A stretch of DNA of 64,000 nt from Flammulina velutipes (Eukaryota; Basidiomycota; Agaricomycetes; Agaricales; Physalacriaceae). Under the pieces are notes generated by a model. It was not told the origin of the DNA. It saw nothing but the letters and a program-made list of their open reading frames with translations, and did no database searches. Made by a program: the position numbers and the translations under genes. Shown piece by piece: positions 12,261 through 32,548 of the stretch. Location of the stretch: contig CM022372.1 in assembly GCA_011800155.1 (NCBI GenBank), positions 248,001 through 312,000 of the forward strand. Reading direction: 5' to 3'. Within the stretch, counting starts at the first letter, position 1. Each line of letters opens with the position of its first letter.

Positions 12261-15200
12261 ATGTCCAACCTTCGGCCAGAAAATTCATGGTCCATGCACT
12301 GGCGCCCTCCCGAGGAACACCGCATGCGACGTCAGTTCGAGGCATTGAACAGCACTCCTGATGACCACTCTGGACACGGGCGACCTGCTGCGCACACATA
12401 CTCCCAGTTTCGTCAGCCACTTGCCCAGGGTTCCACTCATTCGAGAGGTGGCTACCACTTGACGTTTGACGGCGATAGTCTGGCATCTGCCCGCCCAGTT
12501 CCGGCAAAGAAACAGCGGGTGGAACCTCGGGATGTCGACAATACATTTTCGGATATGGATTTCGATGTCGCTGCCGGGTATGAGGTCAGCGCGGAGCTCT
12601 TGGGCGAACCTCGCAACTATGTTGACCAGACGGGGGACATTTTGGAAGACAGGAATGGGAATGGGAAAGGGCGACGTCCTGCTAACTATGTGGTGCGCTT
12701 TATTTGATCTTTTAGCGAGTACTTGGCGCTGACCCAGAGCTAGGATGATCGTATGGGCTCATTTGTTGCTCTACGCGAGAACTTCATTGCAGAATCACTC
12801 CGCCTACATGGATTGGGCTACTCGACGTACGAGCGACAATGCTCAACTTGCTCTTCAAAGCTGGTGACTGAGTCAGAGGCACGATCGACCCAAATCAACC
12901 CAAATCCGCTCTATCGCTGCCGTCGTTGTGGCCAGTTTGCGGAATGTGAAGGGTGCTGCATTCGTCGTCATCAGCAGTCACCTCTTCACCGTATAGAGGT
13001 GGGTGCTTTGTGTTAACTTCTATTATAGCATACTGACACTGGTTTAGGTTTGGCGGGAAAATTTCTGGGACCGTACCACCTTGCGAGCCATTGGACTTGT
13101 CTACCAAATCGGCCACGCTGGTTTCCCTTGTCTCGTTCCAGAGGATTCCCCCCGACTCTTGACGATAATGGATACTACGGGCATTCACATGGTGGACAGC
13201 CGTTTCTGTGCATGTGCTCAGTCGCAAGGCATTACTCATTGGCAACAACTATTTCGAGATGGCTGGTACCCCGCGACAACAACTGCCCCTCAATCTTGCG
13301 CCACGATGGAGCTTCTCGAATTTTATCGACGACTAAAGGTTATCGCCACTGTCAATGTCCGTGACTTCGTCACAACACTGGAAAATATGACGGATCCTTG
13401 GGGCACAGAATGGACGCCAGACCGCTACAAGGAACTTGGCAATATGAGCCGTCAGTTCTCATATCTCGAGCGCGTGCGACGATCTGGTGTCTGTCTCGAC
13501 GAGGGAGGATTGGATATGGCAGCGGAGGGGAGTTTGGCAGTTGAATGCTGGGCGTGTCCCCGTCTTGGCGTCAATATGCCGACAAACTGGCAAGACGTAT
13601 CTCCCAGTTTGCAGTAAGTACATTCACTTTATCTTGCCCATATTGTCAGCTGATGTCATTTAGATATGTATACCGCCGAATTCTTTCTGTCGATGCGAAT
13701 TTCCGAATGAAGAACAAGCTCCGTCATATGGCTCGTCCGGACCCACCTCTTTATTCGGGGTTGGGGGTTCAGGTCCCTCAAGAGCTGTACCACGATTGGT
13801 TACGTTCGTACGTCACGGAGGAAGAGGTATGGCTTGGTGCTTTTATATTGTGTGTATTAGCTGATGAATGTTTTATGCACAGGTCTCAAACTGCGCTGCA
13901 TTTGCCGCACTTTTGCAGAAAGATACAAAATTTTCGACTGGGTTGCGTTGGGCGGGTGTTCTCGGAGTCATTTGTGCACGTCATGAAATCCTTCTTGGCC
14001 TGGGCGACTTGGAAAAGGGTGAACGGTAGGTGTTCTCTGCTATTGTCGATGCGAGTTTTTACTGACACAATACGACAGATACAAGAATACGGATTTCATC
14101 CTGTACTGGGTACTGTCACGGATGGGCTTGAAGGAACTGGCGATCACGTACGACATTGCGTGTCAGTATAAGAAACGGTGGAAGGAACGAATCGCTGCAC
14201 TCCCTCGCGCGTTGCGAGAACTTCCAGTTCCCACAGTCACTTGGGGGCTCCCTATTTGGCATGGGAAGGGGCATGGGCTCCAGTGCGAAGAGGAGAATTC
14301 CTTCAAGTACCAGGTCGGTGTTGGGAAGACCGATGGCGAGGGCCCGGAGCGTCTGTGGTCAGTGCTGAATCCTCTGTCGTTCATGACAAAGGAGGAGCAC
14401 CACGGCGCGAGGCACGATGATATTGAGGATTTCATAAATATGCACAACCACAGGAAGAATATCTCTATGGGTCAGTCTTTTTCTGTTTCGTATTTTTTTT
14501 TCGTCATACTGAGAGCAACATAGGGTATGTTCTATTGGAGAGATTGAAGATCGCATTGGAGGAGCGGGACGCGCAATTGGCAGCATTTCTGGAACTTAAC
14601 CGCTCTCTCAGCTCGGACTTGAAGAAAGAATGGACCAAGTTGGTACGGGATTGGGAAGAAGGGAAGGAGAACACGGCCTGTCCTTACTCTGCAACATCTA
14701 CGGCGAGTAAGTGATCTTTCTTTCTTTTGAGTCGACTTCTGAACTGACATTTGCTCTAGACGCGATGTCTGAGGCGCAGGTACGAGCTGACCTCCATTGT
14801 TCCGACACCGAGGAGGCTGCCAACGACGACAAAGAGATTTCAAGCATGGATGTCGACGGGGAGGATGGCTTTCAATTCGACGAAACGGATGCGGAGGGGC
14901 ACGACATCCAACATTCACATACTACAAAAGCTCAGGAGTCGAAGAAGATGACGCTGGCCGCGTTCCTCATCTCAGGCTTGCAAATCGAAGAGGCTCAGTG
15001 AGTACACTACTAGATGCATTCGCGAACATAGGCTCTAACTTGTTCATTCACAGGCATCGACTGCGGCGTGATACATCCTCTCTGACTTCGTTAACCGTGT
15101 CTCGCCAAGGCAAGATCAGTGAAAGACGGACAGCACTCTCCAAGAAGATCAAAGCGTTTCACAAGCACCAGTCACTCTTCATGCCCGGGGTACAGGCCCT

Positions 15201-15603
15201 CAGGCAAGCCCAGGACGAATCCCGCCTTCAAAACAACCAGTCCGACGGGCATCCAGAAGATACCAGGCTGTATATGCCTTCGGATGTTCCGCACACAAGA
15301 ATTATGGGTAGTCTTCGTCTGTTTCAGACGGAGGCTAGGCTACGTCGCGCCCAGTGCCATGATGCTTTGGAGCTTGTTCGTGGACGACTACTGTGCAAGC
15401 GCCACCTCGTCACATTTCGCAACCTGCACGTCACAGGACAGCGCGAGTCAACACGATCGTCCACCCTTATCGTGTCGATGTCTGAGAAGCTGGGGGAGAG
15501 CGTGGCGAAGTATAGGCAATGCCATCAAGCACTGGTGCAGCTGGTAGGGGAAGATAAGTGCGGTAACTATCGGGAGCTGAAGGATGATGACGTGGCCGTT
15601 TGA
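12261..15603 (+). pseudogene. KDZ transposase of element alpha, 5' part, interrupted by element beta
   Basis: About nine exons starting at ATG 12261 (N terminus with SWSMHWRPPEEHRMRRQF). After 12744 comes the KDZ-associated CxC2-type cysteine cluster (CSTCSSK... YRCRRCGQFAECEGCCIRRH). The catalytic core keeps the family's acidic motifs: SVDANFRMK near 13690, YDIACQYKKRW near 14150 and DGEGPERLWSVLN near 14335, the likely DDE triad. The last exon is cut after LKDDDVAV at 15600, where the 16.3-kb element beta enters. The missing C-terminal part is at 31921-32548 and resumes in the same frame after a 10-bp repeat. Compared with the complete beta transposase this fragment lacks the C-terminal SWIWT...EEMRR region. 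It would encode a truncated transposase if transcribed. The identification as KDZ is firm; the exon ends are approximate. Confidence 0.9.
15592..15601 (+). repeat. Left target-site duplication of element beta (GTGGCCGTTT)
   Basis: This 10-mer is repeated exactly at 31921-31930. Reading across from 15601 to 31931 restores the alpha transposase frame, which supports a target duplication of 8-10 bp; one or two bases may be chance extension. Confidence 0.85.
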
Positions 15604-15634
15604 GCCATAGCAGTACTCTACAGCCAAATGTCCT

Positions 15635-15679
15635 GGGATATATCCCCATGGGTGAATGTCAGTGCTGGGGCTATATCCC
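15635..15679. repeat. Left terminal palindrome pair of element beta
   Basis: GGGATATATCCC (15635-15646, a perfect palindrome) and GGGCTATATCCC (15668-15679), 33 bp start to start and 33 bp inside the left tip. They correspond to the pairs at 31846/31880 and 32739/32772, so they are candidate transposase-binding sites. Confidence 0.75.
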
Positions 15680-15839
15680 TACTGGGGTTGAGTTGGTTCT
15701 CCCTAGGCAACCACAGCCGCGGATGATTTGTCAGCCCCGCCCCCGCCATTGGAGGGTCAGGCACACAATCCCGTCCATTTTCATTTGGTACCCATTCCTG
15801 CGGGATCTCCCGGATCGGGATCATGTTGCCGCGGACGGA

Positions 15840-16535
15840 TATTGCCGTCGTTCCCATTATAAAAGGATATATTTGGGCGCCCGTCCACCTTACCGTTTGC
15901 CTGTAGCGCCACATATTGTCTGGGTGATACCTCTTGTTGCGCCACATAATCTCCCATGTGTTCCCATCAACGGCTCTTGCCGCCGCTGTCCCACCTACAA
16001 AAGGATATAATTGTGGCGCGACTGTTAATGGAATGAATCCCCGCTTCCAATTACAGGTAGCATCACCCTCTCGTGTGTAGCGCACTGATCCCCATACACA
16101 TCAACAGCTCTTGTTACTGCTTCCTCTTTGCCACCCTTCCCGGATATAAATGTGGCGCCAGTGGATACAATCAAAAGAATCCCTCGTCAATTTCTATTTC
16201 GGAAAGTTACTCTATATGTGTGACGCCTCCGTATGCTTTGTGCGACTGCTACCTATCGTATACCTTTGGCGGCATATTGCCGGCGCCGGTGTCTTCATAT
16301 AATAGAAAAGCTGTATTTCCGGCGCCGCACTGCAAAGGCAACAACACTTGAGCTATATATCGTAAGCTCTTCATCAGCTCTCGTCCGTCGTGCACCTGAA
16401 AAAGACAATGTTCGTCCAAGTAATATATTTCTTCTAAGTCCAAGATCGTGAGGTCATCCGGCAATTTCCGGTCCGGCAACACCTTGTCTTAATTCTACAT
16501 ACCCCGAAACACTGTTTACCACTACGAGCGCCACA
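15840..16535. repeat. Subterminal TGTGGCGC repeat cluster of element beta
   Basis: TGTGGCGC or its complement lies at 15906, 15939, 16012, 16151 and 16528. Two of the sites and a degenerate one near 15870 share a preceding GGATATA (AAAGGATATATTTGGGCGCC, AAAGGATATAATTGTGGCGC, CGGATATAAATGTGGCGCC) with a period of about 140 bp. This parallels the array at 99-740 in element alpha. No gene is seen in 15605-16568. Confidence 0.65.
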
Positions 16536-16568
16536 CCCATTCTCGACAACTACCAACTACGAAGACGA

Positions 16569-19500
16569 CTAAGACGACTCGTACCCGCGTTCCCTCAGCC
16601 CTTCCATCAACCATGTGGCATCCTTTACGTACTCTTCCCACACGCTGTGCCCAACTTCTTCTCTCTGTGCGTCTCGCCACCAGTACAGGCAAGCAACCAC
16701 CGACAGCCATCTGTTTTGGCCCCAAACATTCAGCGCGCCAAAATCTCGACTATGGCGCGTACGAATACGAGACCCCTCCTTGTTTTCCTTCCTCCACGAT
16801 GGTTGGATTGAATCCCACCATCCGATGAACGACGCCTTGAAAACTGCAACGTCCTTCGGCTTTAATGTCAGCATCTTCTTCGCGGTGTTTCCCCCCTTCC
16901 TCGGCTTCAAACGCCCGTCTGCCACCCACTCTGACAGGATCGCCGGGCGACCACTGGGGCGCAAGTTTCCATCCGCAATTGCAAACTCCACCGAGCCCTC
17001 CAGCTTGACGAAGGCCTCAAGCAACCCTTTCCAAGTGTCGCCCCAATCTGGCGCCGAGAACACGCGGTACGGGACCCGAAACCAATTCAACGCTTCCAGC
17101 AATAACTCGCGCGCTTCATCGTCTACTTGAGTCCCCGGCTCAGCACTGTTGGGTTCATTGTTCCTTTCCTCGACCTCTCTCATGTCTGCTGATGGGATTG
17201 ATGTAGAGGCACCCGCCAGATTGTCGCCAGCAGCGATGTCGCAATCGTCTGCAGCCTGTTCCACCCTTCCGCTGGCCCTCGCAACCTCGTCGACAATGGG
17301 CAGGACGGGCAGGACGGTGGGGACGGATGAGTCCGGCATGATACCGCCCGAGGCGGGAATGGGACTGGCCGGGGGGACTCCACAGGCGGGCAAAGTAGGT
17401 GGGAGGATGGTCGAGGAAAGGGATGTGCTAGAGCTAGCCACTACGTCAACGTCCATCTCGTCGTCGTTGTCGATCGACATTGGCTCATCGGTCAAGGGGG
17501 GGGAAGCTGCAGTCACTTTGAAGCGACTTGACTGGCGTCGCTCGACGGGCTCCGTGTTGTCTGGAACGGACCTCTCTGCACGGGGACGCGATACCTTCTT
17601 CTTCGTCACCTGTGGTAGATTCGTCGTGTCAATATTCAAGGCTTCCAACGCCGCCTTATTCCTGCGGATATTTTCCTCCCTCTCAAGCTCGTACTTCGAG
17701 ATCAGGACTCACCCTATGACCTACCCATAACTAGTTAAACCCCTATAGTGACGGGGCCAAACAACTAGTTGCTGACTGTCACTACGGGCTAATAGGCTGG
17801 CTGGTAGAAATGGCTGGTCGTCGGGCTGGGGCGGGCTGGCATGGGGCGGGATGGGTACCATATATGGACAGGAATTGATGGGAGCATATAGGGATTGATG
17901 GGGAGGGGGAGGAGGAGCAGGGGATGGGGAAATGTGGCCACACATAAATCCGGACCTAGGGATTGATGAGTACTGATGTCATTGATTGCCCAGGGGGATG
18001 GGGGATAGGGATAGGAATTGTGGCACCAGGAAAATCCGGACCTAGGGTTTGATGGGGGCAGGGGATGGGGGATGGGGGCAGGGGAAATGTGGCCACACAG
18101 GAATCCGGACCTAGGGATTGATGAGAACTGATGGGATTGATGGGAGAGAGGATGGGGGATGGGGGCAGGAGGATTGGGGGCAGGGGACAATTGTGGCACC
18201 AGGATAAATACTGGGCTATTGCCAGGGTATGAGGAGGGTATGGGAGGGATGATTGTAGGTTGAAAAATAAAATTCTTTCTAACTATCAGAAACATGAATG
18301 GGGGTGTGGCAGCTACTGAAACCAACAATAAAACGATGTGTGGCGCATTTTTAATCGAGGAGCACATACCTCGGATCGACCTGGGGTTGTTCTAGATGTC
18401 TTCCTATTGAAAAATGGATGTGTGCAGCACAAAGAACCATGTAAAAACACGAAGATTTGGGTGAGAAACAAGCAGAACATTATTGAAAATCCATCAAAAA
18501 GCACCAAAAAGGGAGCAGCACTTTGCCCTCGTTTGGGGGTGACCTGAAACCACCTGTAGGTCGTCCAGACACCTTTGGGGCATTGTATATGTCACTCAGT
18601 TAGGTTCCCAGGTCAATAGAACCCTTGGATATGATCAAAATGTCAAAAACCCGGACCACATAGATTTGGGCCACACTATCAACTTGCCCTGACCTGGGGA
18701 CACCTTATATTCGAAGATATATGTATATAATACTCTAATCATGAGTTAGATGAGGTCTGGAGTGTGAAAAATGCGGTCAAAACCTTGGATATACCCCAAA
18801 TAATGTCCCCCAAGAAAGCACACACACCATCAACTTCCCTTGACCTCTGGGTCGTCCTAATGTGTTCTATTATCATTATAGATGATGTATTAACACCCCA
18901 GAGGTTCCCCCAGTGTGTCAAAATGCGAACATTCATGATACTAGGTGAACCCTTATTCACCCTTCCTGCTCAAGTACACTCACTGGTTCGCATATCTACA
19001 TCTTTAGGACTGTTCTAATAGTCATTTGACATCATATAGATAATATCTTGGGGCCCAGGTCACAGGTAGACCTCGAAGATACACCTCTTTGGTACATGGT
19101 GAGGATATGATCTTTGTACTAATTCTCAAATGTGCATGCTCTATATTGAAGGGTGTTCAACCTGGGACATATTCTGGGAGGCTAAAAACACATTGTATGA
19201 TGTTAAAATCAATAGTCCACCACTCAGATGTGTGATAGTTGGGGTGATTCTTGCTGGAGAAGGAGGAGATATGAATTATTGTACCATTTATATTCGCATT
19301 TTGACATACTGGGGACACCTCTGGGATGCTAATACATCATATATAATAGTAATAGAACACATTGGGACGACCCAGAGGTCAGGGGAAGTTGATGGTGTGT
19401 GTGCTTTCTTGGGGGACATTATTTGGGGTATATCCAAGGTTTTGACCGCATTTTTCACACTCCAGACTTCATCTAACTCATGATTAGAGCATTATATACA

Positions 19501-21972
19501 TATATCTTCGAATATAAGGTGTCCCCAGGTCAGGGCAAGTTGATAGTGTGGCCCAAATCTATGTGGTCCGGGTTTTTGGCATTTTGATCATATCCAAGGG
19601 TTCTGTTGATCTGGGGACCTAACTGAGTGACATATACAATGCCCCAAAGGTGTCTGGACGACCTACAGGTGGTTTCAGGTCACCCCCAAACGAGGGCAAA
19701 GTGCTGCTCCCTTTTTGGTGCTTTTTGATGGATTTTCAATAATGTTCTGCTTGTTTCTCACCCAAATCTTCGTGTTTTTACATGGTTCTTTGTGCTGCAC
19801 ACATCCATTTTTCAATAGGAAGACATCTAGAACAACCCCAGGTCGATCCGAGGTATGTGCTCCTCGATTAAAAATGCGCCACACATCGTTTTATTGTTGG
19901 TTTCAGTAGCTGCCACACCCCCATTCATGTTTCTGATAGTTAGAAAGAATTTTATTTTTCAACCTACAATCATCCCTCCCATACCCTCCTCATACCCTGG
20001 CAATAGCCCAGTATTTATCCTGGTGCCACAATTGTACCCTGCCCCCAATCCCCCTGCCCCCATCCCCCATCCCCTTCCCCATCAATCCCATCAGTTCCCA
20101 TCAATCCCTAGGTCCGGATTTTCCTGTGGCCACATTTCCCCTGTCCCCATCCCCCATCCCCTGCCCCCATCAAACCCTAGGTCCGGATTTTCCTGGTGCC
20201 ACAATTCCTATCCCTATCCCCCATCCCCCTGGGCAATCAATGACATCAGTACTCATCAATCCCTAGGTCCGGATTTATGTGTGGCCACATTTCCCCATCC
20301 CCTGCTCCTCCTCCCCCTCCCCATCAATCCCTATATGCTCCCATCAATTCCTATCCATATATGGTACCCATCCCGCCCCATGCCAGCCCGCCCCAGCCCG
20401 ACGACCAGCCATTTCTACCAGCCAGCCTATTAGCCCGTAGTGACAGTCAGCAACTAGTTGTTTGGCCCCGTCACTATAGGGGTTTAACTAGTTATGGGTA
20501 GGTCATAGGGTGCAGGACTCCGTTAACCCTGACCAACGTGGAGAAAACCTCAACTGCTCTCTCTTTCCCCGCCTCCTCCATTATCTTCTGTCTCTTCCTT
20601 GTGGGCGTGGGCGACATGGCAGCTGGTCGCTTCGTCCCTCCTGAACCTTCCTCATCACTATCCTCATTCTCCGATCCCTCGTCGTCACTTCCAGCCAACT
20701 CGCCAGTATCCTTTGCCGCCACCTTTGCCTTCACCGCCTCAACAACCCCATTCATTACGTCATCATCGAAGAGCACACCTTTGAAGTCGGGAGGGAGCTG
20801 AGGAGTTGTCGCAAGCTTGAACGAGTCTTTATCCGCTTGGGTATACGCGGTGTTGGCGTACTTGACCAAATGGTTGCGCCAGCCTTCATACGCCACTGTG
20901 TCCCACTTCGCGACAGAGACGGGGACAGTATCCAGATTCTTGCCGGAACAAACACTTTCGTCAAACGTTAGCATCACGTTCAATTGCGAACTATCGTCCT
21001 CACCTAACCACTCCTATCTCTCCGTTCATAGCGCCCAATGGACCGACAACATGCACGATGGTCATCAGGCCCGTCAAGCTCATAATCCCTTCGGCGACTG
21101 GCTGGAGAAAAGTGGGGAGGTTCTTGACGCAACTAACAGACATGGTAAGCACTTTCGTCGAGTATGGAAAGCAGGTGAATGCTTACGCAGCACGATCCTC
21201 AGGTGCCTTTGAAGGAGGACCAAGATACAGGTCGTTCCATGCTGTTTTTTTGGCCTCGGCCATCGCCTTGGCCTGCTTCGCCCAGGACTTCTGTGTGTCG
21301 GCACTAAATGACTTGAAGTGCGCCTGGATCGTCTCCTGTCGAAACTTGGGACAGATACCCCCTCTTGCAGGGATCCTCTGCCTCCCCGCAGCGACCTCCT
21401 CATCCCACAAGTCTGAGACCACAGACGTCGCCTCGTCCTTGTTACGCGCCTGCCATTCCTGGAAAGGAGTGCGAGCCCTAGGAGGGCGCATACCCAGTTT
21501 GCCGACTTTGTTGAGAAGCGCGAGGTAGGCGTCGGTAAGGAGGCGGCGACGGACAGTGGAGCGTATGGTTGTCAATTTTAGAGCCCTGTACACCATCCAT
21601 GCACGAATTGCCTGGAATACTTGTGAGTACGATAGGACCTAGTTAATGCATGAAACTGACCTTTTTCTTTTTCTCTCTCAGGTCGCGTCTCGCCCGTAAT
21701 TCCTCAGTTGTACCGTCCTCGACGGGTGGCATCCAAGATTTGTCGAACACCTTCAAGGGAAGTGGAGGTTCAACCGTATCGTCAAGGTCAAAGTGATAGA
21801 AATATTGACGGATGACCTTTCGAAGACATTCTTCCTCGGCGGCTGCTCCCTTGCCCATGGCATCCGCGAAATCATTGACGTAGAGGTTTAGGAAATCCTC
21901 GCGGGCTCCTTCAGCCCAGCCTTTCTTGGTAGTGCGGTGAGCCTTTGGTTTCTTGGTGTACTTTTGAGGCAT
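16569..21972 (-). pseudogene. HMG-like / W-rich domain protein (beta copy, W2), exon split by palindrome copy 2
   Basis: Exons 21661-21972, 21187-21611, 21004-21132 (129 bp, the same size as in W1) and a last exon from 20954 to 16569 that contains the 2803-bp palindrome at 17710-20512. If the insert and one copy of its 7-bp duplication (AGTCCTG on this strand) are ignored, the frame runs on from VRVNGVL into ISKYELEREE, and the total is exactly 814 codons. Motifs match W1: KKGWAEG, an HMG-like FKSFSADTQKSWAKQAKAM, GLMTIVHVVGPLG-x-MNGEIGVV, an acidic linker, then GWWDSIQPSWRK and LSVVACLYWWR. The uninterrupted flanking frame shows the insertion is recent relative to decay. Transcripts would contain a very long hairpin. 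Confidence 0.88.
17710..20512. mobile_element. Palindromic TIR transposon, copy 2 (2803 bp)
   Basis: Flanked by the perfect 7-bp duplication CAGGACT (17703-17709, 20513-20519). The arms are 17710-18929 and 19293-20512, each exactly 1220 bp, with a 363-bp spacer (18930-19292). The first 100 bp of the two arms are identical as far as I can read, but differ from the tips of copies 1 and 3. AACTAGTT sites are at 17729-17736 and 17763-17770, mirrored at the other end. It sits in the last coding exon of the W2 gene. The spacer is in the opposite orientation to that of copy 1 relative to the window, which may simply reflect insertion orientation. Confidence 0.92.
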
Positions 21973-22201
21973 TGTAATGAACTATCGCGTCAGATTGGCA
22001 AGGCAGCCTCAGACGACAGGGGAGGATGTGATGGACAGACGCAACGCAACCGCGGCACCCGGCTGTACCATATTCGCAAGGGCAGGGCACTGTGTCCGCT
22101 ACATTTCCAATAGACGCACCAGAAGCGTGACCAGATTCTGCTCCCGCTTTATTAAGGCTGGCTGCCCATCTTTTTCCTTGATCCTCCTTTCTCTAACTAT
22201 C

Positions 22202-22954
22202 ATGTCGCAATCTCCCCCAAGCAATCTTGACGCCAACAATCAGGCGAAAGAGTCCTGCTCGCTGTCGTCGAATGCTGAGACACCGGCTGGTTCCTCCTTG
22301 GATCTCATCGAAGGTAGTGAGGACGGTTTCAGTGACTATACTATCATCAGTAAGTCACGGCCATCGACTCTTTACTTCGCTGATTTTTGATTCAGCTGAG
22401 CCTACTCACGAAGGTGTTCAATACTATGCGGTTCAACCAGCGCTAGTCGACGCCCCTGCCGCGCAAGTTGATGCTACTGCCGCGCCAATCGATGCCACTC
22501 CTGCGCCAGTCGATGCCACTTCGGTTGGCACCGAAAATACGTCTCTGACTGGGGCGATCCCAGTGACCAACCCGACCCCCATCATCCATGGTGTTCAGTA
22601 CTACACTGTTCCTACCACTGACATGGTGTACCTCGCTGCCGACGAGCAGGCTCGCGAATGGTACGTTGTCACTCGTGGAATCTTTGTAGGCGTTTTCAAG
22701 TACTCGTCAGTCTTTTTCTTCGTCTTGCTGTATCACACCTCCTCATGAGTTCTTACAGCTTCTTGGTGGATCAGGCGACTCGCAAAGTTGGTTCTGCCCA
22801 CGGCAAAAAGGAGGACAGCCTTCGCGATGCGGTCGAACACTTCAACGCCGCCCGCAACAGCGATTGGATGCGTATCTGCGTGTGAGTTGACTACTGCGTC
22901 CCTCGCTTTGCATTGTGAGATATTGACATCATTTGCAGGCGACCAGATCTTTGA
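22202..22954 (+). CDS. RNase H1 N-terminal (viroplasmin-like) domain protein (beta copy, one domain)
   Basis: Four exons from ATG 22202 to TGA 22952-22954. A Ser-rich leader is followed by a run of imperfect eight-residue repeats (VDATAAPI, DATPAPVD types) around 22450-22520. The RNase H1 N-terminal-type domain comes next: EWYVVTRGIFVGVFKY...RKVGSAHGKKEDSLRDAVEHF. The protein ends shortly after (ICVRPDL). Unlike the alpha counterpart at 4074 it has no C-terminal membrane helix. It is read divergently from W2 and followed 84 bp later by the two-domain gene, as in alpha. Likely binds RNA/DNA hybrids or dsRNA; this is inferred from the domain. Confidence 0.7.
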
Positions 22955-23038
22955 AACCATGTACAGGCGCTCGGACCACATGACCCGCTAAATAACTACC
23001 GTAGTTGAATTTCCAATGAAGCAAACGTTGTTCTCTCC

Positions 23039-23979
23039 ATGAGTGACGTTGAGCAATACCCTGTCATCTGGGTCAACTCCTCGTCCGAGTCTGACGATTC
23101 GTCCTCCTACGCGACCTGCGCTGACGATAGCATCGATCTCGAGCTATCGGACAATGATGAAATTTGCCATCTAATCCGGGCACTCGCAGTGGCAGAAGAC
23201 AATGCGGCAGAACGCGCAGGTATTTTTTGGAGTTTCAGGGAGACGTTGCGACTGATCTTGGTTCTTAGAACAGGAGAGGGCGCGCGCGGACGCAACAAGT
23301 TATCAAATCATATCGCCGACGGGGGCGATAACCACTGCTAATTGGTACAAAAAATTGAATTCAATAATTGTGGAAATTCACAGATTCGCAGGGCGAGAGC
23401 AGGCACTGCTCAGGTGGCGGGGGCCCATGTCGTCGCAGATGTCAAACGGACGAAGCGTAGGATACGCTGGCCATTCTATGTTGTCTTCATTGGGCGTCCG
23501 TCCGGCGTTCATATTGGCTGGCGTAACGCACACGCGGCGACCCAAGGCATTACTTGCAACTGCGTGAAGGGATACGCCACACTACAACAAGCCCAGGCGG
23601 CATTCGAATATGCTGCTGACCGGGGATGGGTTGGACCCCCTGATGGTGGACGGCTGATCCCACGTATTCTTCCCATTCCATTGGATGCACGAGCCATGAT
23701 AGCTCCCGCGCTGACTCCATTGTGTCCCAGTGACGCCTACTGGCTGTACTACTGCGTTTATCGCGGGCAGCGCCCCGGTATCTATTGTTCCATGTGAGTC
23801 AGATAACCATATCTTGATTATTGGCTTCATTAACATGCACACAAAGCATTGAGGCGCATCTTTCGTCCGTGGGTGTACCCACTTCGCTCCATGAATGTTT
23901 CTCATCGATCACCGTCGCGAGGGCGAAGTATGTGGAAGCGACAGAGAGAAATGAGATAGTCATTATGCCCGCGCCGTAG
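23039..23979 (+). CDS. Protein with two RNase H1 N-terminal (viroplasmin-like) domains (beta copy)
   Basis: Four exons. Exon 2 joins exon 3 through a 48-bp intron (GTACAA...TTCGCAG) that restores the frame as NWARAGTAQV. An acidic/Ser leader precedes a coil (EQERARADATSYQ). Domain 1 is PFYVVFIGRPSGVHIGW...GYATLQQAQAAFEYA. Domain 2 is YWLYYCVYRGQRPGIYCS..., split by an intron with the downstream exon ending ...EIVIMPAP before TAG at 23977-23979. The counterpart in element alpha is at 4772. No catalytic RNase H part exists. The stop lies 12 bp from the end of the convergent MGRKKLY gene. Confidence 0.72.
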
Positions 23980-23991
23980 GAGTAGCAGTAA

Positions 23992-24732
23992 TCACTGGAA
24001 CGATAATAAACCTAAACTCATCGCGTCCACCAGGTCCCCTGTTTCTGTGCGATGATGAATTTCATCAAGGTATTGCATGACCACGGACATCTGGTTCTGG
24101 ACGTTCTTCGCTTCCTTCCATTCGGAACAGATCCCGTATCTGTAAAACAGTGTCCTGATATGGGGACGAGCTCCGTCAATAAACGCAGCCACCTTCTCCA
24201 AGTACGTCTTGATAACCTCGATCTGATGATCTTTGGCAGTCACACCGACCTCATTGGCCACGCGGAGACAGAAAGTTTCGGGACTCGTCTGCATGTATCC
24301 GCCCAACAACCTGTTCTGTTGGTGCATGCGTCCCAAAAGAAGTTGTGGCGCAGGTTTCGAAATCTCCTCGTCGACATGTGTGAGCCTATGTATGGTGTTA
24401 ATACACAGTAATTTAACAATGATATTTCTTTACTCTGTCTCTCTCTTCTCGTGAACAACACTAGCCTTGGAGGCTCGCGGTTTGGCAGTTGGCACCATGG
24501 GTTGGATGCTACGCTTCACCTCTCTCGTTCGTGCACCAGACGTGCCCGAATCCAACTGCCGAGCTTTGTATTCCTTCAAGATCCTCTTGCGGTTGCTACT
24601 CACAAATTGAATTCAACTTCTGAAAGCTGGAGAATAGCACAAAACTACCCACCGGTCGTACCAATGCATTCGGTTGCGACGCTGTGCCTCAGCTTTTTCT
24701 TCTTCACTATGGTAAAGCTTCTTACGCCCCAT
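23992..24732 (-). CDS. MGRKKLY-type basic protein with helical C-terminal domain (beta copy)
   Basis: Three exons in frame: ATG at 24732 (MGRKKLYHSEEEKAEAQRRNR); then NRKRILKEYKARQL...REVKRSIQPM; then, after an intron GTAAAG...ACATAG, LTHVDEEISKPAPQLLLGRM and the final 110 residues. The N terminus is strongly basic and helix-like, suggesting nucleic-acid binding. The C-terminal domain (VIKTYLEKVAAFIDGARPHI..., LFYRYGICSEWKEAKNVQNQ) is helical and resembles the protein at 9216-9524. Its orientation is opposite to the alpha copy, so the module has been locally inverted in one of the elements. Function unknown. Confidence 0.68.
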
Positions 24733-25067
24733 CTAGAAGCCCAATTGGAATGCTGTGAGTTGTCCGGTGGAGGGCAAGTCGTCTATGGATCGAAGTCAGA
24801 GAGTAAGTGCGGTAGGGAATCAAGATCAAGCTCTCCCTTTATTGGACTTTTATTGGACTTTTATGTTTCCCCGCGTTGTAGCCTCAGACAAACATTGTAG
24901 TATTTGTATATGAGTCTACCCAGATATTTTAAACCTGTGTTATGATTCTTCAGGGGGCAAGAATGTGCAAAGCAAGTTGAAGTATGCGAAGATTAGTCTA
25001 TTTAACTTCCCATCGAGATATCATCGTTCGTTCGGTCCGACTGCCTTACCTTCAAACTTCCCACATC

Positions 25068-25858
25068 ATGTCGTCCAAGTTGGCCACAGACAGGCTTCGA
25101 CTCCCCAACGTTTGGGCATCTAATAGCTGCGAGTAAGTTCTAACGGCTTGATTCTTTTTCTTTGTGATCATGTACTTATCTACGTTTGCAGCTACATCCG
25201 GCAACTCCTTCGATTCGCTCGTCCTCTGCCGGAACGACATTTTCTCGAGCAAGGAGCAACATACCAAAGTCAGCTACATTTCTATCTCTATCCGTCACCA
25301 TAAATTGATCCTGAGGTAGATTTGGAAGCTGACCCCAACTTCCGAGAGCTATACTATCATCATTCCAGGCTGCAGCCGGGATTGGTCTTGTCGCCAGACC
25401 CCTCATTCGTTCATGCCAGCGTACAGACCTGGCTCCGCGACAATTCCCTCGAGTACGCCACAGAACACTTTCGTCGGATGGGGGTGTTCGATCACGCAGA
25501 CTTGGTAAACCTGGCCTGCACAATGTGGACGTCCAAAGAATGCCGAACTCACTTGCAGCGTGGCTTGAACCTTGAGCCCTTGGCTTGGCTGACCTTCGCA
25601 TTGGCTCTCGTCCGTTACGCCCGACCTATCGAGTATACGGGCGAGCCAGACGCAGATGCGGACGAAGAGGAAAAACGGGAGTACACTTACCTGTTTGTAG
25701 AAATGGAATGGCACGATAGACTGCAGGTGGCGCAGGAGCAGGTCATGATCGCAGAGCGCGCACGCCATAAGTGGGTTGAAGCATGGATAAAATTGCGGCT
25801 AGACCACGATCCTGCCTACGCGCAGGAGCGGGAGCAAGAGCAGGAGCAGGAACTCTGA
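25068..25858 (+). CDS. SAM-like small protein (beta copy)
   Basis: Exons 25068-25132, 25192-25268 and 25320-25858 splice in frame (ATYQ joined to NLEADPNF). The central domain, WLRDNSLEYATEHFRRMGV then DHADLVNLACTMW then LNLEPLAWLTFALALVRYARP, matches the domain of the gene at 9697 almost position for position. The C-terminal third is highly charged, with a Glu/Gln run at the end (REQEQEQEL). A TGTGGCGT site follows at about 25881. Probably an adaptor-type protein carried by the KDZ elements; this is inference. Confidence 0.65.
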
Positions 25859-25931
25859 ATTCGGACCCCTTACATTATCATGTGGCGTAGAAAATCATTG
25901 GATTTATTTACGCCCCGTGGAACCAAAGATA

Positions 25932-26295
25932 TCAAAGTTTCGCAATCGGCAACACTGTAGAACTGTTCCTTGAGCTATTCAACCGCTCCCAAACTCGTTC
26001 CGGGGTCTCGCCGTCTGCAACCTGACTTGTGCGTCTACTCTTCCATAAACAGGGGGCATCATAGGAACATGACGGGGAGTGAGTGGCATGGTGCCAAATG
26101 GGTTGCGCCAACGTGAATCGTATGAATGTCCTGGGATGAAGCAGCGCCTGACGGTAGGACCAATGTCTTGGTGAACGCCACAGAACACGAAGCTCTAGTC
26201 GATGATATCGGTCAGTGACTCCGCCATAGAATAACAGCTTAAATACCTTCTGGAGGCGTGTTGGAAACTAAGGCTGACACGGTTGGTTCGGTCAT
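25932..26295 (-). pseudogene. Possible KDZ-related fragment
   Basis: A two-exon reading from ATG 26295 (MTEPTVSALVSNTPPE) across an intron of about 50 bp gives some 120 residues ending with VADGETPERVWERLN near the C terminus. This resembles the third catalytic motif of KDZ transposases (DGEGPERLWSVLN at 14335). Nothing else of the domain is clear, and another frame of the same stretch looks equally protein-like, so this is a weak call. Confidence 0.25.
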
Positions 26296-26464
26296 CGTCG
26301 CGGTAGCTATGATGATTGAAAATAAAATACTAGTTCCCTTTATACCGCGGGGCGCTGATATCGGCACTCATATCAAATACACGTGCGAGGCGAGGAAACT
26401 TTGGGAAGGGGGCAACAATATTGGATTTCCGAAGTAAATAATTTCCCCTCTTCACTCTCATCGC

Positions 26465-26947
26465 CTACAGCCTCTGGGGCTGTCGAATGCCCGCGGCGAA
26501 TGAAACCATGTGATCTAACTTGGCACCCAAGGCCTTTAATAAGGTCGAGTCAGTAAATTAGACGACATGGAAGCTACAAAGACGACTTACTCTAACACGG
26601 GCCTGGTGGAAGCGAGCGACCAAGTCTTCGTCTTCCGGAAAGGGCGGGATGTTCTGTTCAGGATAGACATCGAGGAACATGCGCCACACCGATTCAAGAT
26701 ACGCCATCCGCTGCTGAGGCTCATTCCTGTGCTGCCGGTATTCTGAAACATGCCCTCTGATGAACGTGAATTGGCCCGGCGTCACAAATAGAGATGTCGC
26801 TGAACGAAGTGGAATGTCAGGTCGGGGCGATGAAAACAATCGAATTAACGCACGGGTGCTCACTCGGAAGGCCTTCTCCTTGGGAGCTTTTGACTTTCTC
26901 TCATACGGCGGAGGTTTGCTGGTTTTCAGAGGCATGAGCTTCGGCAT
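26465..26947 (-). CDS. Truncated third copy of the W-rich family (W3)
   Basis: Two exons, 26591-26947 and 26465-26533, joined by a GT-AG intron, give about 140 residues. Only the N-terminal part of the family is present: a basic leader (KTSKPPPYERKSKAPKEKAF), then PGQFTFIRGHVSEYRQ..., FLDVYPEQNIPPFPEDEDLV. This corresponds to KGWAEGAREDFLNLYVNDF in W2 and KGWMQGLPEELICPLI in W1. The HMG-like and C-terminal domains are missing. It lies just upstream of, and divergent from, the beta KDZ gene. It could be a decayed copy or a short regulatory version; I cannot tell which. Confidence 0.5.
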
Positions 26948-27377
26948 TGAGGGAAATGAGGTGACCGTGGTCAGAAAGAGTCAGATTTTAAAGCCCAGAA
27001 GTTCACTTCGGATAGAAGCCCAGAGAAGCCAAATGGTTGCCTAGTGGCGCGCGCGCGACAGATCAGACAAATTGAGTGAGCATAGGGCCATGAACATCCG
27101 GAGGCATCAGACAATTTGTGGCGAGGGGTTAGGTCCCATAATTCCGTGCTTGCATCACTCCACCAGCACAAACATAGTCACAGACGACGTCTGCACATTT
27201 CGACCTTCACTCGACAAGACTGAACGCTCGTTTTTCAGAGAGCCACATTGCGACCAAGAAAACAGTGGAGACAGGTAGAAGAGAGCTACGTCACAATCAC
27301 GAGTCACGGTCCATATTCTTCTGTCGCTCAATGATCATGGCCAATATCATTCAATTCGCGTCCAGCTCTTCTTGCTC

Positions 27378-30300
27378 ATGGTCGAAACATCTTGGGACTT
27401 TCGGTGGCGACCGGATGAAGAATACAAAGGGCGACGCAATTTCGAGTTGAAAAACTTTGGCACGACTTCCATCGGGCCTGCACCCACCAACTTCGCACCT
27501 GCCCGTCCACCTTTGATTGCTTCAGGCAGTGTACCAGCAACTCACCAACCTTTGCCAGGCGTTTACACCCTGCCATCCATTCCCAACGTTAATGCTAGCA
27601 GCCAGCTCCCAGTCACACGCAAACCACGCCGGTCCACGAAATTATCAGATATCTCTCTTCCAGAACCTCTGAAACCTACACAAGAGCGCTCAGGTTACAC
27701 TCGAAGGGATCTGGACACCACAATCGAATTTTCAACAAACGGAAACCGAGCGATTTGTGTGGCTGAACAACGGGATGTCCCCATACCCAAGCGCGTGCGT
27801 GTTAGTGACGCTGGTGGTTGGACTGGTCAGGTTGGGGTGGACATTCCTCTAAGGGAAGAGGATGGTGATGACGAGGAGAGTGTCGCAGGAGAGGAGTCAG
27901 AGACAGAAGACGTTTGGCAGGATGTGGAGGAGGGGTCCAATCCGGCTGCTCTCATCGACGAGAATGGCGAGATAAGGGAAGGGAAGCGCAAGAGTCATGC
28001 TAGCTCCGTACGTCTGTTTCTTCGATTTTTGGTATCATTTGTTCATTGGCATGGGTACAGGATGACCCAATGTCGCTCTTTCTCCCCATGGTTGACACTA
28101 TACTCAACGAGATGTTCGTACGCGAGAGTCTCCCAACACAGCCGTGCTGTCAGACCTGCTGTTTGCCCTTGGCTTCCCCTCCGTCTATTTCCCCCCCGTC
28201 GGCTTCAAGTTCATCACCCTCGCCGTCATCACCCTCGCCGTCAACCGCCTTCGAGGGGGACAGTGCTGCGTCACCACCTCCATCTGTTCCCTCTGCAAGC
28301 GAGCTGGAGTCCTCCGCATCCTCAGTCCCTCAGGCTGGTCTGACCCAACTGCAGTCCATAGCGCAGCTCTTCAAGTGTACCACTTGTGGAGAATTTTTGG
28401 AATGTCGGGTGTGCTGTATGAAACGCCATCAGTATACGCCTCTTCATACACTAAAGGTATGATCTCCCGTGTTCTGGACATCATGTCGACTGACTTGGTT
28501 TGTTGTAGGTCTGGAATCCCGTTGGCTTCTTCACCCGGACGTCTCTACAAGAACTTGGCTTATGCTTCCAACTCGGCCACGGTGGCGGGCCTTGTCCGGT
28601 TCCGGGTGCGCTGAGATTGGTCACCGTCATACATGTCAACGGTGTCCATCAAGTCGCGGCATCGATTTGTGGATGTGACCTTTCAGACGAGGCAAACGAG
28701 TGGCGACAGTATGTTCGCATGGGATGGTACCCCGCTTCGACTGCACAGCCCCGGACGCTGGGAACGTTTGAATGTCTGCGCCATTTTCGACGTCTAAATG
28801 TCGTCGCGAACGTTAATGTTCGCGACTATGTGACCACTTTGGAGCGTCTAACTGACCCAATGGGTCTGGAGTTTGTCCCGGATCGCTACAAATCCTTTGG
28901 TCTGATGTCGCAACAAGTTTCTTACATGGACCGTATGCGTAGATCAGGTGTGGGTTATCTGAAGGGAGGTGTGCGTTCAGCATCGTGGGGGGCGGCGGCT
29001 GTACGTTGCTGGGCGTGCCCTCGGGCGAAGGTCAACCTTCCAGAAAACTGGAGAGATGTTGATGCCAACTTGCAGTAAGTCGTTTCCTCGTTCATGTGAA
29101 GCTCTACTGACACGACCAAAGGTTCAAGTATGCACTCATCTTGGGCATGGATGCATGCTTTCGTTTGGAAAATCGCCTGCGTGCGAAGAGCCAGAACAAA
29201 CAGTATGCGATTTTGGCGGATGGACTCGGCTGTTTTGTGCCCCACAAGAGCTATTTTTCTCATCTCAAGAACTACGTCAAAGAGGAGGATGTACGTTGTT
29301 CATTTGGAATATCTATCATACTGATCCTTGTTACTCCCTTAGATCAGTAGTTGTATTGCGTTTGCTGCCTTGATGCAGAAAGACACGCGTTTGTCCAAAG
29401 GGTTGCGAGCAACGGGGGTGGGGGGATGTATCTGCACATGTCATGAGATCATACGTCCGCTGGGTTTAGGCGACCTTCTGAAAGGCGAGCGGTATGTTTT
29501 CCCGCCTCTTTCGTCTAAGAAACGAAACGATTGACGGCCCACAGGTACGCCAACATGGACTATATATTCTGGGCTTCAATCCTGGGTGAAGACCTCTTGC
29601 AATACATCGTCTCCTACGATGTGGGTTGTCAGTGGAAAATCCACTTGGAGGAGCGTCGGCAACATCTGCCAGCAGTTTTGCGGGACACGAGCGAGACACG
29701 CAAGATCTGCGTAGGGCTTCCAGTCTGGCATGGGGGAGTCCACGAGGATGCATGTGCGTCTTCAGAGTCACTGTGTTACAAAGAGGGCGCTGCTATGACG
29801 GATGGTGAGGGCGTCGAGCGCGTTTGGAGCAAGCTCGGCCCTAAGGCATGGACGACGAAGGAGATGCACGAGAATACTCGGCACGAGAGTCTAGAGGACA
29901 CGATGGACAACCTCAATTGGACTAAAAATCTTGGCCTCGGTGAGTGACATTTTGTTGTAATTGGGCTGCGCATCTAATGTTTGGTGATAGGTATCCTGCT
30001 GCGCCGCCGCTACGAAGTCGCAAGAGTCGAACAAAAAGAGCAGGCGGAAAACTTCAAAAGCACGAGTGCTACTCTCGACATCAAGTTGCGTGAGCGCTGG
30101 ATGAATTGGATCAAGCAGTGGCACGCGGAGGAGGATCTGCTCCGCAAGGATAAGACAGTTGGGAATCCCTATGAGGCTTCGTGGAAGCAAGGTAAAGAAT
30201 TATTTACTTATTGCTGTCTTCCAGTCGCTTACCACTCGAACACAGACACTATCACCGTGGATAAGGTGCATACAGATTTGGATCGAGAGGAATTGGAAGA

Positions 30301-31615
30301 GCTTCGGAACGAGCGCGATGAGACGACAAAGGAGAGGACTAGTACCCGAGAAGTGGTGCCAGCGAAGGGGGTCGCTGGCGTCTTGGCATTCATCCACTTG
30401 GGTTTGCTCATCCAGAGCATGCAGTATGTCTCGGTCCTATTTCTGCGAAACGTAGTGACTAACTCCCTCTCCTGCAGATTGCGAATCAAGAACATGAAGA
30501 AAGCGCGGCGGAAAGAAGATGGTCACACTCGCCTTTTACAAGCACGACGTACGGCTTTCTGGAAGAAACTTCGACGATTCCGTGCCCTGCAGGCGACCTT
30601 CATGCCACAGGCCCTGTCACTAGCTTCAGAACACGAGCAGACGGTCAGCCTGAAGCGAGAGGAGGCGGCACGCAAAGCCAAAATCGATGCAAAACCAGTA
30701 GAGGCGGAGGACATCAAACTTTTCCTCCCTTCTGAAATCCCGAAGTCAGAGCGTGGTCCTTCTTATCAGGCGGCGGTGTTTTCCATTGAGTCGCGGTTGC
30801 GGGAGGCTCAGTGCTCGACACAACTGTCAGTGCTACGTATGCGTTTACATTCCAAATCGCACCTGATCCGTTTCCGAGATGCGAACCTTCGGGGCCAGAC
30901 AAAGACGACACGTTCGCGGGGGGTGCTTGAGCGTCTGAGCGACCGCATTGACAGCGCAGTCCGACGATATCGCGTGGCAAGAAGAGCGTTGGTCCTATTG
31001 GATGGAGATGAGAAATGGCAACATTTCCCTCGGCTGGAGGACACCGACGTCTCGACTCGTTTTGTTACGGACTACGACGGCTTGCGGGCTAGGCGCTTGG
31101 CCAAGATCGGGCGCAATGGCAAGCGTCGTATGATAGCTGATGCCGAGGAAGAGGAGAATAACGGGGCAGAAGGGCGTGGGGGCAGTCGTCGCAAATTGAG
31201 CTGGATCTGGACAGCTCAGGGCGTTCCAGATCCAGACGAGGATGAATCACTTCACGAATGTAAGTATTTTCTGAATGTATACGCCACAGGTACTGACCGT
31301 GTCCATGCAGCTATTAGAGTCGAATGGACCAAAGCATATGCTCGAAAGGAGAGATGGCGGGAGGAGGTAGTTCTGCTCGAGGAGGAGATGCGCCGGGTGG
31401 TCGCTTCCCTTGAGTACAAACGGGGGGAGTGGTTACGGCGAAAGGAGGAGGTTGATAGCACAGACAGAGTTGGGGCAGGAAAACGTGCCTATGCATTACG
31501 GCAGGCGGCTGCACGCTCCAAATTGCGAGACGATTTCAGGATGTGCTTTGACGCGACGGAGGAGTTGGGGCGAACGGGCAAGAAAAGAAGAGTAAATCAT
31601 GTGGTGCAAGTGTGA
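27378..31615 (+). CDS. KDZ transposase of element beta, full length
   Basis: The start is ATG 27378 (MVETSWDFRWRPDEEYKGRRNF), which aligns with SWSMHWRPPEEHRMRRQF of the alpha protein. After an acidic region come the CxC2-type cysteine clusters (CCQTCCLPL..., FKCTTCGEFLECRVCCMKRH). The catalytic core follows: GMDACFRLENR near 29150, GCICTCHE near 29430, YDVGCQWKIHL near 29615 and DGEGVERVWSKLG near 29803, giving the three acidic positions expected for the KDZ nuclease. The C-terminal part has coiled-coil character and ends with KLSWIWTAQG and RVEWTKAYARKERWREE...LEEEMRRV, the region lost from the alpha copy. About ten exons. No frameshift or stop was seen in the exons I could join, so this may be an active autonomous transposase. 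It lies 230 bp from the right end of the element. Confidence 0.9.
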
Positions 31616-31845
31616 AATACTTATGGTTAAATAGTGGACATATGACGTGTGGTGTTTCCTCAAAATTTGATGTGATTCTGGGCTGCTTTTGGCTGGGGTG
31701 CCTGGTTACTGCGGGATTCAATGGCGCTGTGAGAGCAGGAGGGCGGGAAATGATGTAATGAGGCGGACGGCACATCGGCTACGGTCGGTCCGGGAGGGGG
31801 ACGCCACAGGAGATATGCCATGTTTCCGAGGTTCTGTCCCTGCTG

Positions 31846-31891
31846 GGGATGTATCCCTATCACATACTGATTTGACCTGGGGATACATCCC
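31846..31891. repeat. Right terminal palindrome pair of element beta
   Basis: GGGATGTATCCC (31846-31857) and GGGATACATCCC (31880-31891), 34 bp start to start. Exactly 29 bp separate the outer one from the tip at 31920. They are inverted relative to the left pair. Confidence 0.75.
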
Positions 31892-31920
31892 TATGGGCTC
31901 TCATTCACCTGCTGCCACAG

Positions 31921-32548
31921 GTGGCCGTTTATACAGTATCGGAGTCTGATGCTCATTCGGTGAAGCAGTTGGGAGTGTTAGGTGGTAGGGGGAGTAGGAA
32001 GGGAGGCGAGGCAAGTCGGTGTGAGACCCACAGTCGTCAGAATGACCCAACAGATTCGCGATACACGAGAACGTCATGGATATGGACTACCGATGGATTA
32101 CGAGGGGACGACGAATATTTACATGAATGTAAGTTTGGTATATTTTCTGTCCAGTTTTCTGTTGACTGACTCATGTTGTACAGGTGTCCGTATTGAGTGG
32201 GCTAAGGCCTTCGCACGCAAAAGGCGCTGGACGGAAGAGGTTTACATAGTTGAAGAGGAAATGCGTCGTGTCCTACACACTCTGGATTATGAAATACGAA
32301 GGTGGCGCCGACGGGCAGAGCGTGTTTCGTCGCAGTGTCTACGTGAGGACGAGGCTGGCGGACGGCGAGCTTATGGCATGTGGCAGATGTCTTCCTTGAC
32401 GCATCTCAAGAAGGCGTTCGAGTTTTTATGGCTTCGTTCAGAGCCATCGCGAGGGAAGGAACATGGTGTCATGGACGAGGCAGCGTTAGCGGCGACTACC
32501 GCGCTTCTCAGCGAGGACTTAGACCAGGCGGCGGTGATTTCCGAGTAG
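31921..32548 (+). pseudogene. KDZ transposase of element alpha, displaced C-terminal part
   Basis: Begins with the second copy of GTGGCCGTTT and reads V-A-V-YTVSESDAHSVKQLGVLGG, continuing the frame that stops at 15600 in the upstream fragment. An intron (GTAAGT...TGTACAG, about 32130-32183) leads to VRIEWAKAFARKRRWTEEVY and EEEMRRVLHTLDYE, homologous to the C-terminal region of the beta transposase (RVEWTKAYARKERWREE). It ends at a TAG at 32546-32548. Separated from its N-terminal part by 16.3 kb, it has no start codon or promoter of its own. Confidence 0.88.

What the first reader, a model, noticed from the sequence alone, without database searches (positions are those of the whole stretch)
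15592..31930. A 16.3-kb KDZ transposon inserted in another KDZ transposase gene, with a 10-bp target duplication
The alpha transposase stops at 15601-15603 just after GTGGCCGTTT. The same 10-mer recurs at 31921-31930 and is followed in the same frame by a KDZ C-terminal region (YTVSESDAHSVKQLG..., EEEMRRV) that the upstream fragment lacks. Everything between is therefore one insertion. It contains a full KDZ transposase and at least five other genes. Precise ends and an intact interrupted frame are rare evidence for the true limits of a giant KDZ element; most KDZ gen­es are annotated without element boundaries.
Basis: seen in the sequence. Interest (0 to 1): 0.95.

Follow-up and report, generated by a model that had tools for sequence, protein, structure and literature searches.

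The report
Nested KDZ transposons with exact ends
A 13.5-kb jumping gene of a known fungal type has landed inside the transposase gene of a relative, and relatives elsewhere in the genome show its exact ends and a fixed spacing of mirror-like DNA sites near each end that may be how its enzyme recognises it.

Summary
The nested KDZ insertion is real, but its limits need correcting. A second copy elsewhere in the genome (99% identical) fixes the ends: the element is 15602-31923, 5'-GAGCC...CACAGGTG-3', and the target duplication is 7 bp (GCCGTTT), not 10. The extra GTG is the element's own last three bases, which happen to match the host. About 2.8 kb is a later palindromic insertion (17710-20512) with its own 7-bp duplication, so the KDZ element itself is 13.5 kb. 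The host gene belongs to another KDZ element (C5:247848-280814, TSD ATCTATT). An uninterrupted relative on C7 aligns straight across the site. In this genome 13 of 13 elements of this tip type whose two ends I located have exact 7-bp duplications. The tips are not inverted repeats; instead 12-bp dyads sit about 33-45 and 67-78 bp from each tip. A second KDZ tip type (CAGGCC...GGTTG) has a different dyad at the same distances. I infer that the dyads are transposase-binding sites. The element is Kyakuja-like by TSD length and lack of TIRs, but its 5' end is GA, not the published CA. The nesting is ordinary; the end architecture is the interesting part.

The parts
15595..15601 (+). left copy of the 7-bp target duplication, GCCGTTT
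   Evidence: sequence; length set by copy 2 and the other elements
15602..31923 (+). KDZ element B1, 5'-GAGCCATAGC...CTGCCACAGGTG-3', 16,322 bp including a 2.8-kb nested insertion; 13,512 bp without it
   Evidence: 99% second copy at C5:2030306-2065509 with different flanks and TSD CTCCTTC
31924..31930 (+). right copy of the 7-bp target duplication, GCCGTTT
   Evidence: sequence
15635..15646 (.). subterminal dyad GGGATATATCCC, 34-45 from the left tip
15668..15679 (.). subterminal dyad GGGCTATATCCC, 67-78 from the left tip
31846..31857 (.). subterminal dyad GGGATGTATCCC, 67-78 from the right tip
31880..31891 (.). subterminal dyad GGGATACATCCC, 33-44 from the right tip
16569..21972 (-). gene g1, about 813 aa model, no Pfam match, interrupted by the palindromic element at 17710-20512; homologues in the C9 element, host A and C7
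   Evidence: pN/pS 0.20-0.32 against C9
17710..20512 (.). 2.8-kb palindromic element, 1,232-bp arms 97% complementary, 339-bp spacer, 5'-CACCCTATG...CATAGGGTG-3', TSD CAGGACT at 17703-17709 and 20513-20519
   Evidence: at least 40 arm matches genome-wide (capped)
22202..22991 (+). gene g2 (approximate model), no Pfam match
   Evidence: conserved exons against C9
23039..23797 (+). gene g3 (approximate model), two Cauli_VI / RNase H1 N-terminal domains
   Evidence: PF01693 E=4.9e-10, two stretches
23992..24732 (-). gene g4 (approximate model), MGRKKLYHSEEEK... start, no Pfam match above cut-off
25068..25858 (+). gene g5, no Pfam match, homologue in host element A
26465..26947 (-). gene g6 (approximate model), no Pfam match
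27370..31615 (+). KDZ transposase gene of B1 (spliced; CxC2 at about 28545-28865, KDZ core exon 29534-29944); start approximate
   Evidence: CxC2 E=5.6e-30; KDZ E=9.8e-31; pN/pS 0.09-0.16 against C9
1..32814 (+). host KDZ element A, which begins 153 bp before the window (C5:247848) and ends CACAGGTG at 32814; TSD ATCTATT (right copy 32815-32821)
   Evidence: collinear with C7:153040-167006
12192..32548 (+). KDZ transposase gene of host A (approximate start), interrupted by B1 between 15601 and 31924
   Evidence: CxC2 E=3.2e-31, KDZ E=3.2e-28
5806..8609 (.). palindromic element of the same family inside host A, TSD CCCGAAC

Best explanation
B1 is a 13.5-kb cut-and-paste KDZ DNA transposon that inserted into the transposase gene of an older KDZ element (A), making a 7-bp duplication; a 2.8-kb palindromic element later inserted into B1. 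Shown: the limits, the 7-bp duplications, the empty relative on C7, the second copy, and dyads at fixed distances from the tips. Inferred: the KDZ transposase (CxC2 zinc-cluster domain plus RNase H-like core) binds as a dimer to each subterminal dyad, pairs the two ends, cuts about 33 bp outside the outer dyad at the conserved tip, and joins the element to target strands staggered by 7 bp. The dyads take the place of terminal inverted repeats.
For: Second copy about 99.1% identical over the three aligned blocks, with other flanks and its own TSD. Empty relative. 13 of 13 elements of this tip type with both ends located have exact 7-bp TSDs; all 10 right tips found by tip pattern alone belong to these and have a left tip with the identical 7-mer. 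Dyads GGGATNNATCCC at 34/67 from the left and -44/-77 or -78 from the right in the B-like tips examined, with up to 2 mismatches. Within each end the dyad columns agree more (left 0.90, 0.89; right 0.74, 0.89) than the neighbouring spacers (left 0.77, 0.61, 0.70; right 0.62, 0.55, 0.67) over 9 left and 7 right tip types. A second tip type (CAGGCC...GGTTG, 7-bp TSD in 2 of 2) has another dyad, TGGTTATAACCA-like, at the same distances. The paired GGG-type pattern finds 14 places in 38 Mb, 12 of them among the 26 tips located, reversed-pattern control 0. The TGG-type pattern finds 11 places: 4 known tips, 6 new ones that lie 1.8-4.3 kb downstream of a KDZ domain (coordinates; five of the six are near-identical copies of one family), 1 unexplained; reversed control 0.
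Against: Binding and cleavage are not shown. In host A and its C7 relative the outer left dyad is degenerate; their right-end sites are within 1-2 mismatches of GGGATNNATCCC but, like the inner left one, fail my 5-of-6 symmetry cut as 12-mers. One CA..TG left tip (C8:2110768) has a poor outer dyad. Two GGG-type and one TGG-type dyad pairs are not tied to a located tip, and the exact GGG-type pattern misses 14 of the 26 located tips. The GGG-type and TGG-type elements are related, so the equal spacing could partly be common descent. Eight of the 13 elements were paired, or their pairing first checked, by looking for the same 7-mer. No reads were available to exclude misassembly.
Confidence: 0.9

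Rival explanations
1. The 10-mer is a true 10-bp target duplication and the element ends at CACAG.
For: Both copies of the 10-mer in the window are identical.
Against: Copy 2 keeps GGTG before its own 7-bp TSD; the 13 elements with both ends located all end in GGTG and have 7-bp TSDs. The C7 relative has GTG at the site without any insertion.
Confidence: 0.02
2. The two KDZ parts are unrelated fragments brought together by rearrangement or misassembly, not one interrupted gene.
For: TE-rich region with repeats; no read data.
Against: One contiguous alignment to C7 across the site; A is collinear with C7 apart from the two insertions and three stretches of about 770, 270 and 200 bp that blastn did not align; exact 7-bp TSDs at B1, at A and at the palindromic element.
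Confidence: 0.03
3. The subterminal dyads are not transposase sites but promoter elements, operator sites for self-regulation, or simply inherited sequence without function.
For: They lie outside the gene models at both ends; no binding data; the families are related.
Against: Same distances at both ends although the two ends are otherwise not alike; two tip types keep the distances while the dyad sequence differs; dyads more conserved than neighbouring spacers.
Confidence: 0.35
4. The composite (16.3 kb) moves as one giant element with the palindromic part as cargo.
For: The palindrome lies inside B1.
Against: It has its own 7-bp TSD and splits g1; copy 2 lacks it there and carries another copy elsewhere.
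Confidence: 0.04

Closest known systems
Kyakuja DNA transposons of Agaricomycotina (PMC12730594, passages read)
   Same: KDZ-type transposase, 7-bp target duplications, no terminal inverted repeats, ...TG-3' end
   Different: 5' end is GA (GAGCC), not CA; no TET/JBP domain in the ORFs and gene models scanned; the dyads are not mentioned in the passages read (the word 'subterminal' does not occur in the main text). The second tip type here (CAGGCC...GGTTG) does fit CA..TG.
Zisupton and Dileera (PMC12730594, passages)
   Same: KDZ superfamily transposase
   Different: 8-bp TSDs, and TIRs for Zisupton; here 7 bp and no TIR at the tips. The 19-kb element in copy 2 (8- or 9-bp TSD, 115-bp inverted repeat near its ends, 86%) looks more like these.
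KDZ1, KDZ2, KDZ3 of Cryptococcus neoformans (PMC12810828, passages)
   Same: 9-11 kb KDZ elements with a CxC domain, complete ends, shown to move
   Different: 139-241-bp TIRs and 4-8 bp TSDs, CxC1 rather than CxC2; smaller than B
KDZ (Dileera, Kyakuja) and Plavaka elements of Marasmius oreades (PMC8290104, passages)
   Same: limits set by TSDs in an agaricomycete; end motifs summarised in a supplementary figure
   Different: the supplementary figure was not seen, so it is unknown whether dyads are shown there

Membership tests
KDZ superfamily | KDZ catalytic domain (PF18758) | tested here: met
   B1 exon 29534-29944 E=9.8e-31; host A exon 14077-14475 E=3.2e-28
KDZ superfamily | CxC cysteine cluster in the transposase | tested here: met
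   CxC2 (PF18803) E=5.6e-30 in B1 and 3.2e-31 in A
Kyakuja | 7-bp target duplications | tested here: met
   13 of 13 elements of this tip type with both ends located
Kyakuja | no terminal inverted repeats | tested here: met
   tips GAGCC... and CACCTG... (right end reverse-complemented) are not alike
Kyakuja | 5'-CA..TG-3' termini | tested here: not met
   5'-GAGCC...CAGGTG-3' in B1 and the other GAGCC-type elements; met by the nested C8 element and the C12 element
Kyakuja | transposase falls in the Kyakuja branch of a KDZ tree | not tested
   no named reference sequences at hand
Zisupton / Dileera | 8-bp target duplications | tested here: not met
   7 bp in 13 of 13
Zisupton | terminal inverted repeats | tested here: not met

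The most novel reading that the evidence does not exclude
TIR-less KDZ transposons use a spacing code: transposase dimers bind dyads placed about 33, 67 and sometimes 100 bp from each tip. The dyad sequence diverges between families while the distances stay fixed. Each family would thereby mark its own ends, and new KDZ element limits could be predicted from sequence alone.
Probability: 0.55. Interest if true: 0.6.

Novelty: new member of a known kind. Interest (0 to 1): 0.47.

Why it matters
Exact ends for 15 KDZ elements of two tip types in one genome turn 'KDZ genes' into whole elements with known length, gene content and duplications. If the phased dyads are the recognition sites, they explain how KDZ elements without inverted repeats are recognised, give a sequence rule for finding element limits and non-autonomous relatives, and give a direct target for binding and excision assays.

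Tried and rejected
Rejected: the 10-bp duplication; one single 16.3-kb insertion; assembly fragments as the cause (see rivals). The g1 search in the 5.8-billion protein set gave 1 hit (55% identity over 63% of the query) without context, so it says nothing about function; this set seems poor in fungi and I did not spend the other two searches. A phage-collection search with the left end gave no match, as expected. The left-tip pattern first failed because I set the gap too long and was rerun. The pN/pS value for g3 (0.77) was dropped: the C9 stretch holds a stop, which I think broke my codon alignment (one search shows the two proteins). Left tips at C5:2004453, C8:90672 and C8:1048257 have no right partner by my pattern, so they are not in the 13; the 13 are elements whose two ends I could pair. 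Eight of them were paired, or their pairing first checked, by looking for the same 7-mer beside the other tip (C9a, C9b, C1:3164639, C8:467860 and A; the two at C1:2904187 and C1:2972006; C19). In each the 7-mer abuts a recognisable tip, and six of those eight right tips were also found by pattern without the 7-mer. The ~15 kb of extra DNA in C8:941621-970598 was not examined. KDZ-in-KDZ nesting (3 of these 13 elements hold another KDZ element) was not tested against chance. No fungal genome other than the window's own could be searched.
Full report
WHAT IS THERE. The window is C5:248001-312000 of a 38.1-Mb, 23-contig genome that carries many KDZ transposase genes (166 matches to PF18758, exon by exon, a lower bound). 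The introns and the KDZ content suggest a mushroom-type fungus (inference), but the species was not identified. The 10-mer GTGGCCGTTT is present only at 15592 and 31921 of the window.

THE HOST GENE IS REALLY SPLIT. The C7 relative matches window 15400-15599 at 88% and window 31921-32700 at 81%, and the two matches abut, overlapping by 8 bases. With the flanks joined, the last part of the host KDZ gene aligns to C7 over 1.1 kb in one piece, 84% identity, and both read the same open frame across the site. The KDZ protein inside the insertion also aligns to the upstream and then the downstream host part. Host element A is collinear with C7 except for the two insertions and three stretches of about 770, 270 and 200 bp that blastn did not align.

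THE TRUE LIMITS. A second copy, about 99.1% identical over three aligned blocks (98.97, 99.15 and 99.36%), lies at C5:2030306-2065509 on the other strand. It starts CTCCTTC|GAGCC and ends CACAGGTG|CTCCTTC. The element in the window is therefore 15602-31923 and its duplication is GCCGTTT, 7 bp. The GTG in front of it on the right is the element's end; on the left it is host sequence, also present in C7. Host element A begins 153 bp before the window, at C5:247848 (ATCTATT|GAGCCC), and ends at 32814 (CACAGGTG|ATCTATT).

A THIRD LAYER. 17710-20512 is a palindromic element: arms of 1,232 bp, 97% complementary, 339-bp spacer. It has 5'-CACCC...GGGTG-3' ends and TSD CAGGACT, and splits gene g1. Three such elements in the window and one in copy 2 have 7-bp duplications (4 of 4 looked at: CCCGAAC, CAGGACT, GGCCCTT, ACCCGAC). 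At least 40 arm matches exist in the genome; 278 candidates were found and 40 scored. Without it the KDZ element is 13,512 bp.

HOW GENERAL. Thirteen elements with GAGCC...GGTG tips were paired end to end, and 13 of 13 have exact 7-bp duplications: GCCGTTT, CTCCTTC, CCCACAT, GGTTCGA, AGCTGGC, TGATTGC, ATCTATT, AGTAAAT; GGAAGAT, GACAGCT, GTTTGGT, AGCGCTC; GCGTAGG. Eight of them were paired, or first checked, by looking for the shared 7-mer. As a check without the 7-mer, a right-tip pattern found 10 places (reversed control 0), and all 10 belong to these 13. A left-tip pattern found 11 places, 8 with a partner and 3 without. Three of the 13 hold another KDZ element: A holds B1; copy 2 holds a 19-kb element in its KDZ gene, with an 8- or 9-bp duplication (the site is AGGAAGAGG) and a 115-bp inverted repeat near its ends, 86%; the C8 element holds an 11.2-kb element, 5'-CAGGCC...GGTTG-3', TSD GACACCT.

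GENE CONTENT. Besides the KDZ transposase (CxC2 and KDZ domains), B carries six gene models, g1 to g6, spliced by hand and approximate. g3 has two RNase H1 N-terminal (Cauli_VI) domains; the others have no Pfam match above cut-off. g1, g5 and the KDZ gene have homologues in A. Against the C9 relative, pN/pS is 0.09-0.16 for four KDZ exons, 0.20-0.32 for three g1 exons and 0.26-0.57 for g2, g4, g5 and g6 pieces, with synonymous sites near saturation; the g3 value was invalid and dropped. The accessory genes therefore look like lasting parts of the element, not chance cargo. In B1 the KDZ exons looked at are open but g1 is broken; in copy 2 g1 has no insertion but the KDZ gene and g2 are interrupted.

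THE ENDS. The two tips of one element do not form an inverted repeat. Yet in the B-like elements 12-bp dyads of type GGGATNNATCCC lie at 34-45 and 67-78 from the left tip and at 33-44 and 67-78 (in three of the ten right tips) from the right tip, with up to two mismatches. Over 9 left and 7 right tip types, mean column agreement is 0.90 and 0.89 (left dyads) and 0.74 and 0.89 (right dyads). Neighbouring spacers have 0.77, 0.61 and 0.70 on the left and 0.62, 0.55 and 0.67 on the right; the last 15 bases have 0.95. In A and C7 the outer left dyad is degenerate. Their right-end sites are within 1-2 mismatches of the same motif at -76 and -43 but not symmetric enough for my 5-of-6 cut. The CAGGCC...GGTTG elements carry a different dyad, TGGTTATAACCA-like and often imperfect, at 33/34 and 67/68, and in two right tips again at 100 (five left and four right tips; the C8:2110768 left outer dyad is poor). 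Two of two such elements with both ends located have 7-bp duplications (GACACCT, GGTTTTC). A genome-wide search for two GGG-type dyads 19-24 bp apart found 14 places, 12 at tips already known (of 26 located), and 0 for the reversed pattern. For the TGG type there were 11 places: 4 at known tips, 6 new ones that lie 1.8-4.3 kb downstream of a KDZ domain listed (five are near-identical copies of one family), 1 elsewhere (C2:3459569), reversed control 0.

HOW IT MOST LIKELY WORKS. Shown: cut-and-paste style insertion with 7-bp duplications, precise tips, dyads at fixed distances. Inferred from general knowledge of RNase H-like transposases: dimers of the KDZ transposase bind the dyads, pair the ends, cut at the tips about 33 bp outside the outer dyad, and join to a target staggered by 7 bp. 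No binding or cleavage was tested.

COMPARISON. PMC12730594 (passages) gives Kyakuja 7-bp TSDs, 5'-CA..TG-3' ends and no TIRs, and Zisupton and Dileera 8-bp TSDs. PMC12810828 (passages) reports mobile Cryptococcus KDZ elements of 9-11 kb with TIRs and 4-8 bp TSDs. PMC8290104 (passages) set limits of transposons including KDZ elements in Marasmius by TSDs. So whole KDZ elements with exact ends are not new. B is Kyakuja-like in TSD and lack of TIRs but fails the CA end; its transposase was not placed on a tree. I found no mention of phased subterminal dyads in the passages seen: the word 'subterminal' is absent from the main text of PMC12730594. One search of the held library with the terms 'KDZ transposase', Zisupton, subterminal and palindromic, at least two of four, listed 15 of 103 papers; judged by titles and abstract starts, only PMC12730594 among the 15 deals with KDZ ends. 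Subscription papers and supplements were not seen.

VERDICT. The nesting is real and ordinary in this genome. The element is a new member of a known kind. The phased dyads at TIR-less KDZ ends are the part worth following up.

Noticed in passing
35290-38089: A third palindromic element of the 2.8-kb family, outside both KDZ elements, with TSD GGCCCTT. The family (5'-CACCC...GGGTG-3', inner TAACTAGTTA dyad, 7-bp TSDs) is abundant and may be moved by a KDZ transposase.
   Followed up: partly
C5:2030306-2065509 (L010, L026, L027, L042, L047, L048): Copy 2's KDZ gene is itself interrupted by a 19-kb KDZ element of another type (8- or 9-bp TSD, 115-bp inverted repeat near its ends), in the same C-terminal region of the gene as the insertion in host A (roughly 30 codons away by alignment). 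Possibly a preferred site, possibly chance.
   Followed up: partly
23039-23797: Gene g3 carries two RNase H1 N-terminal domains (recalled to bind RNA/DNA hybrids); host A has a sub-threshold match (5203-5511). Such a protein in a DNA transposon is unexplained.
   Followed up: partly
C8:1618153, C13:1008518, C2:3459569: Paired dyads not tied to any located KDZ tip; possible relics or non-autonomous elements.
   Followed up: no
39840-40067: Two nearly identical 116-bp tandem units (97% matches) in an AT-rich stretch, beside a short further array.
   Followed up: no
C9:910468-947219: Two complete copies of one KDZ element, 9.8 kb apart in the same orientation, each with its own 7-bp duplication, so two insertions rather than a segmental duplication.
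   Followed up: partly
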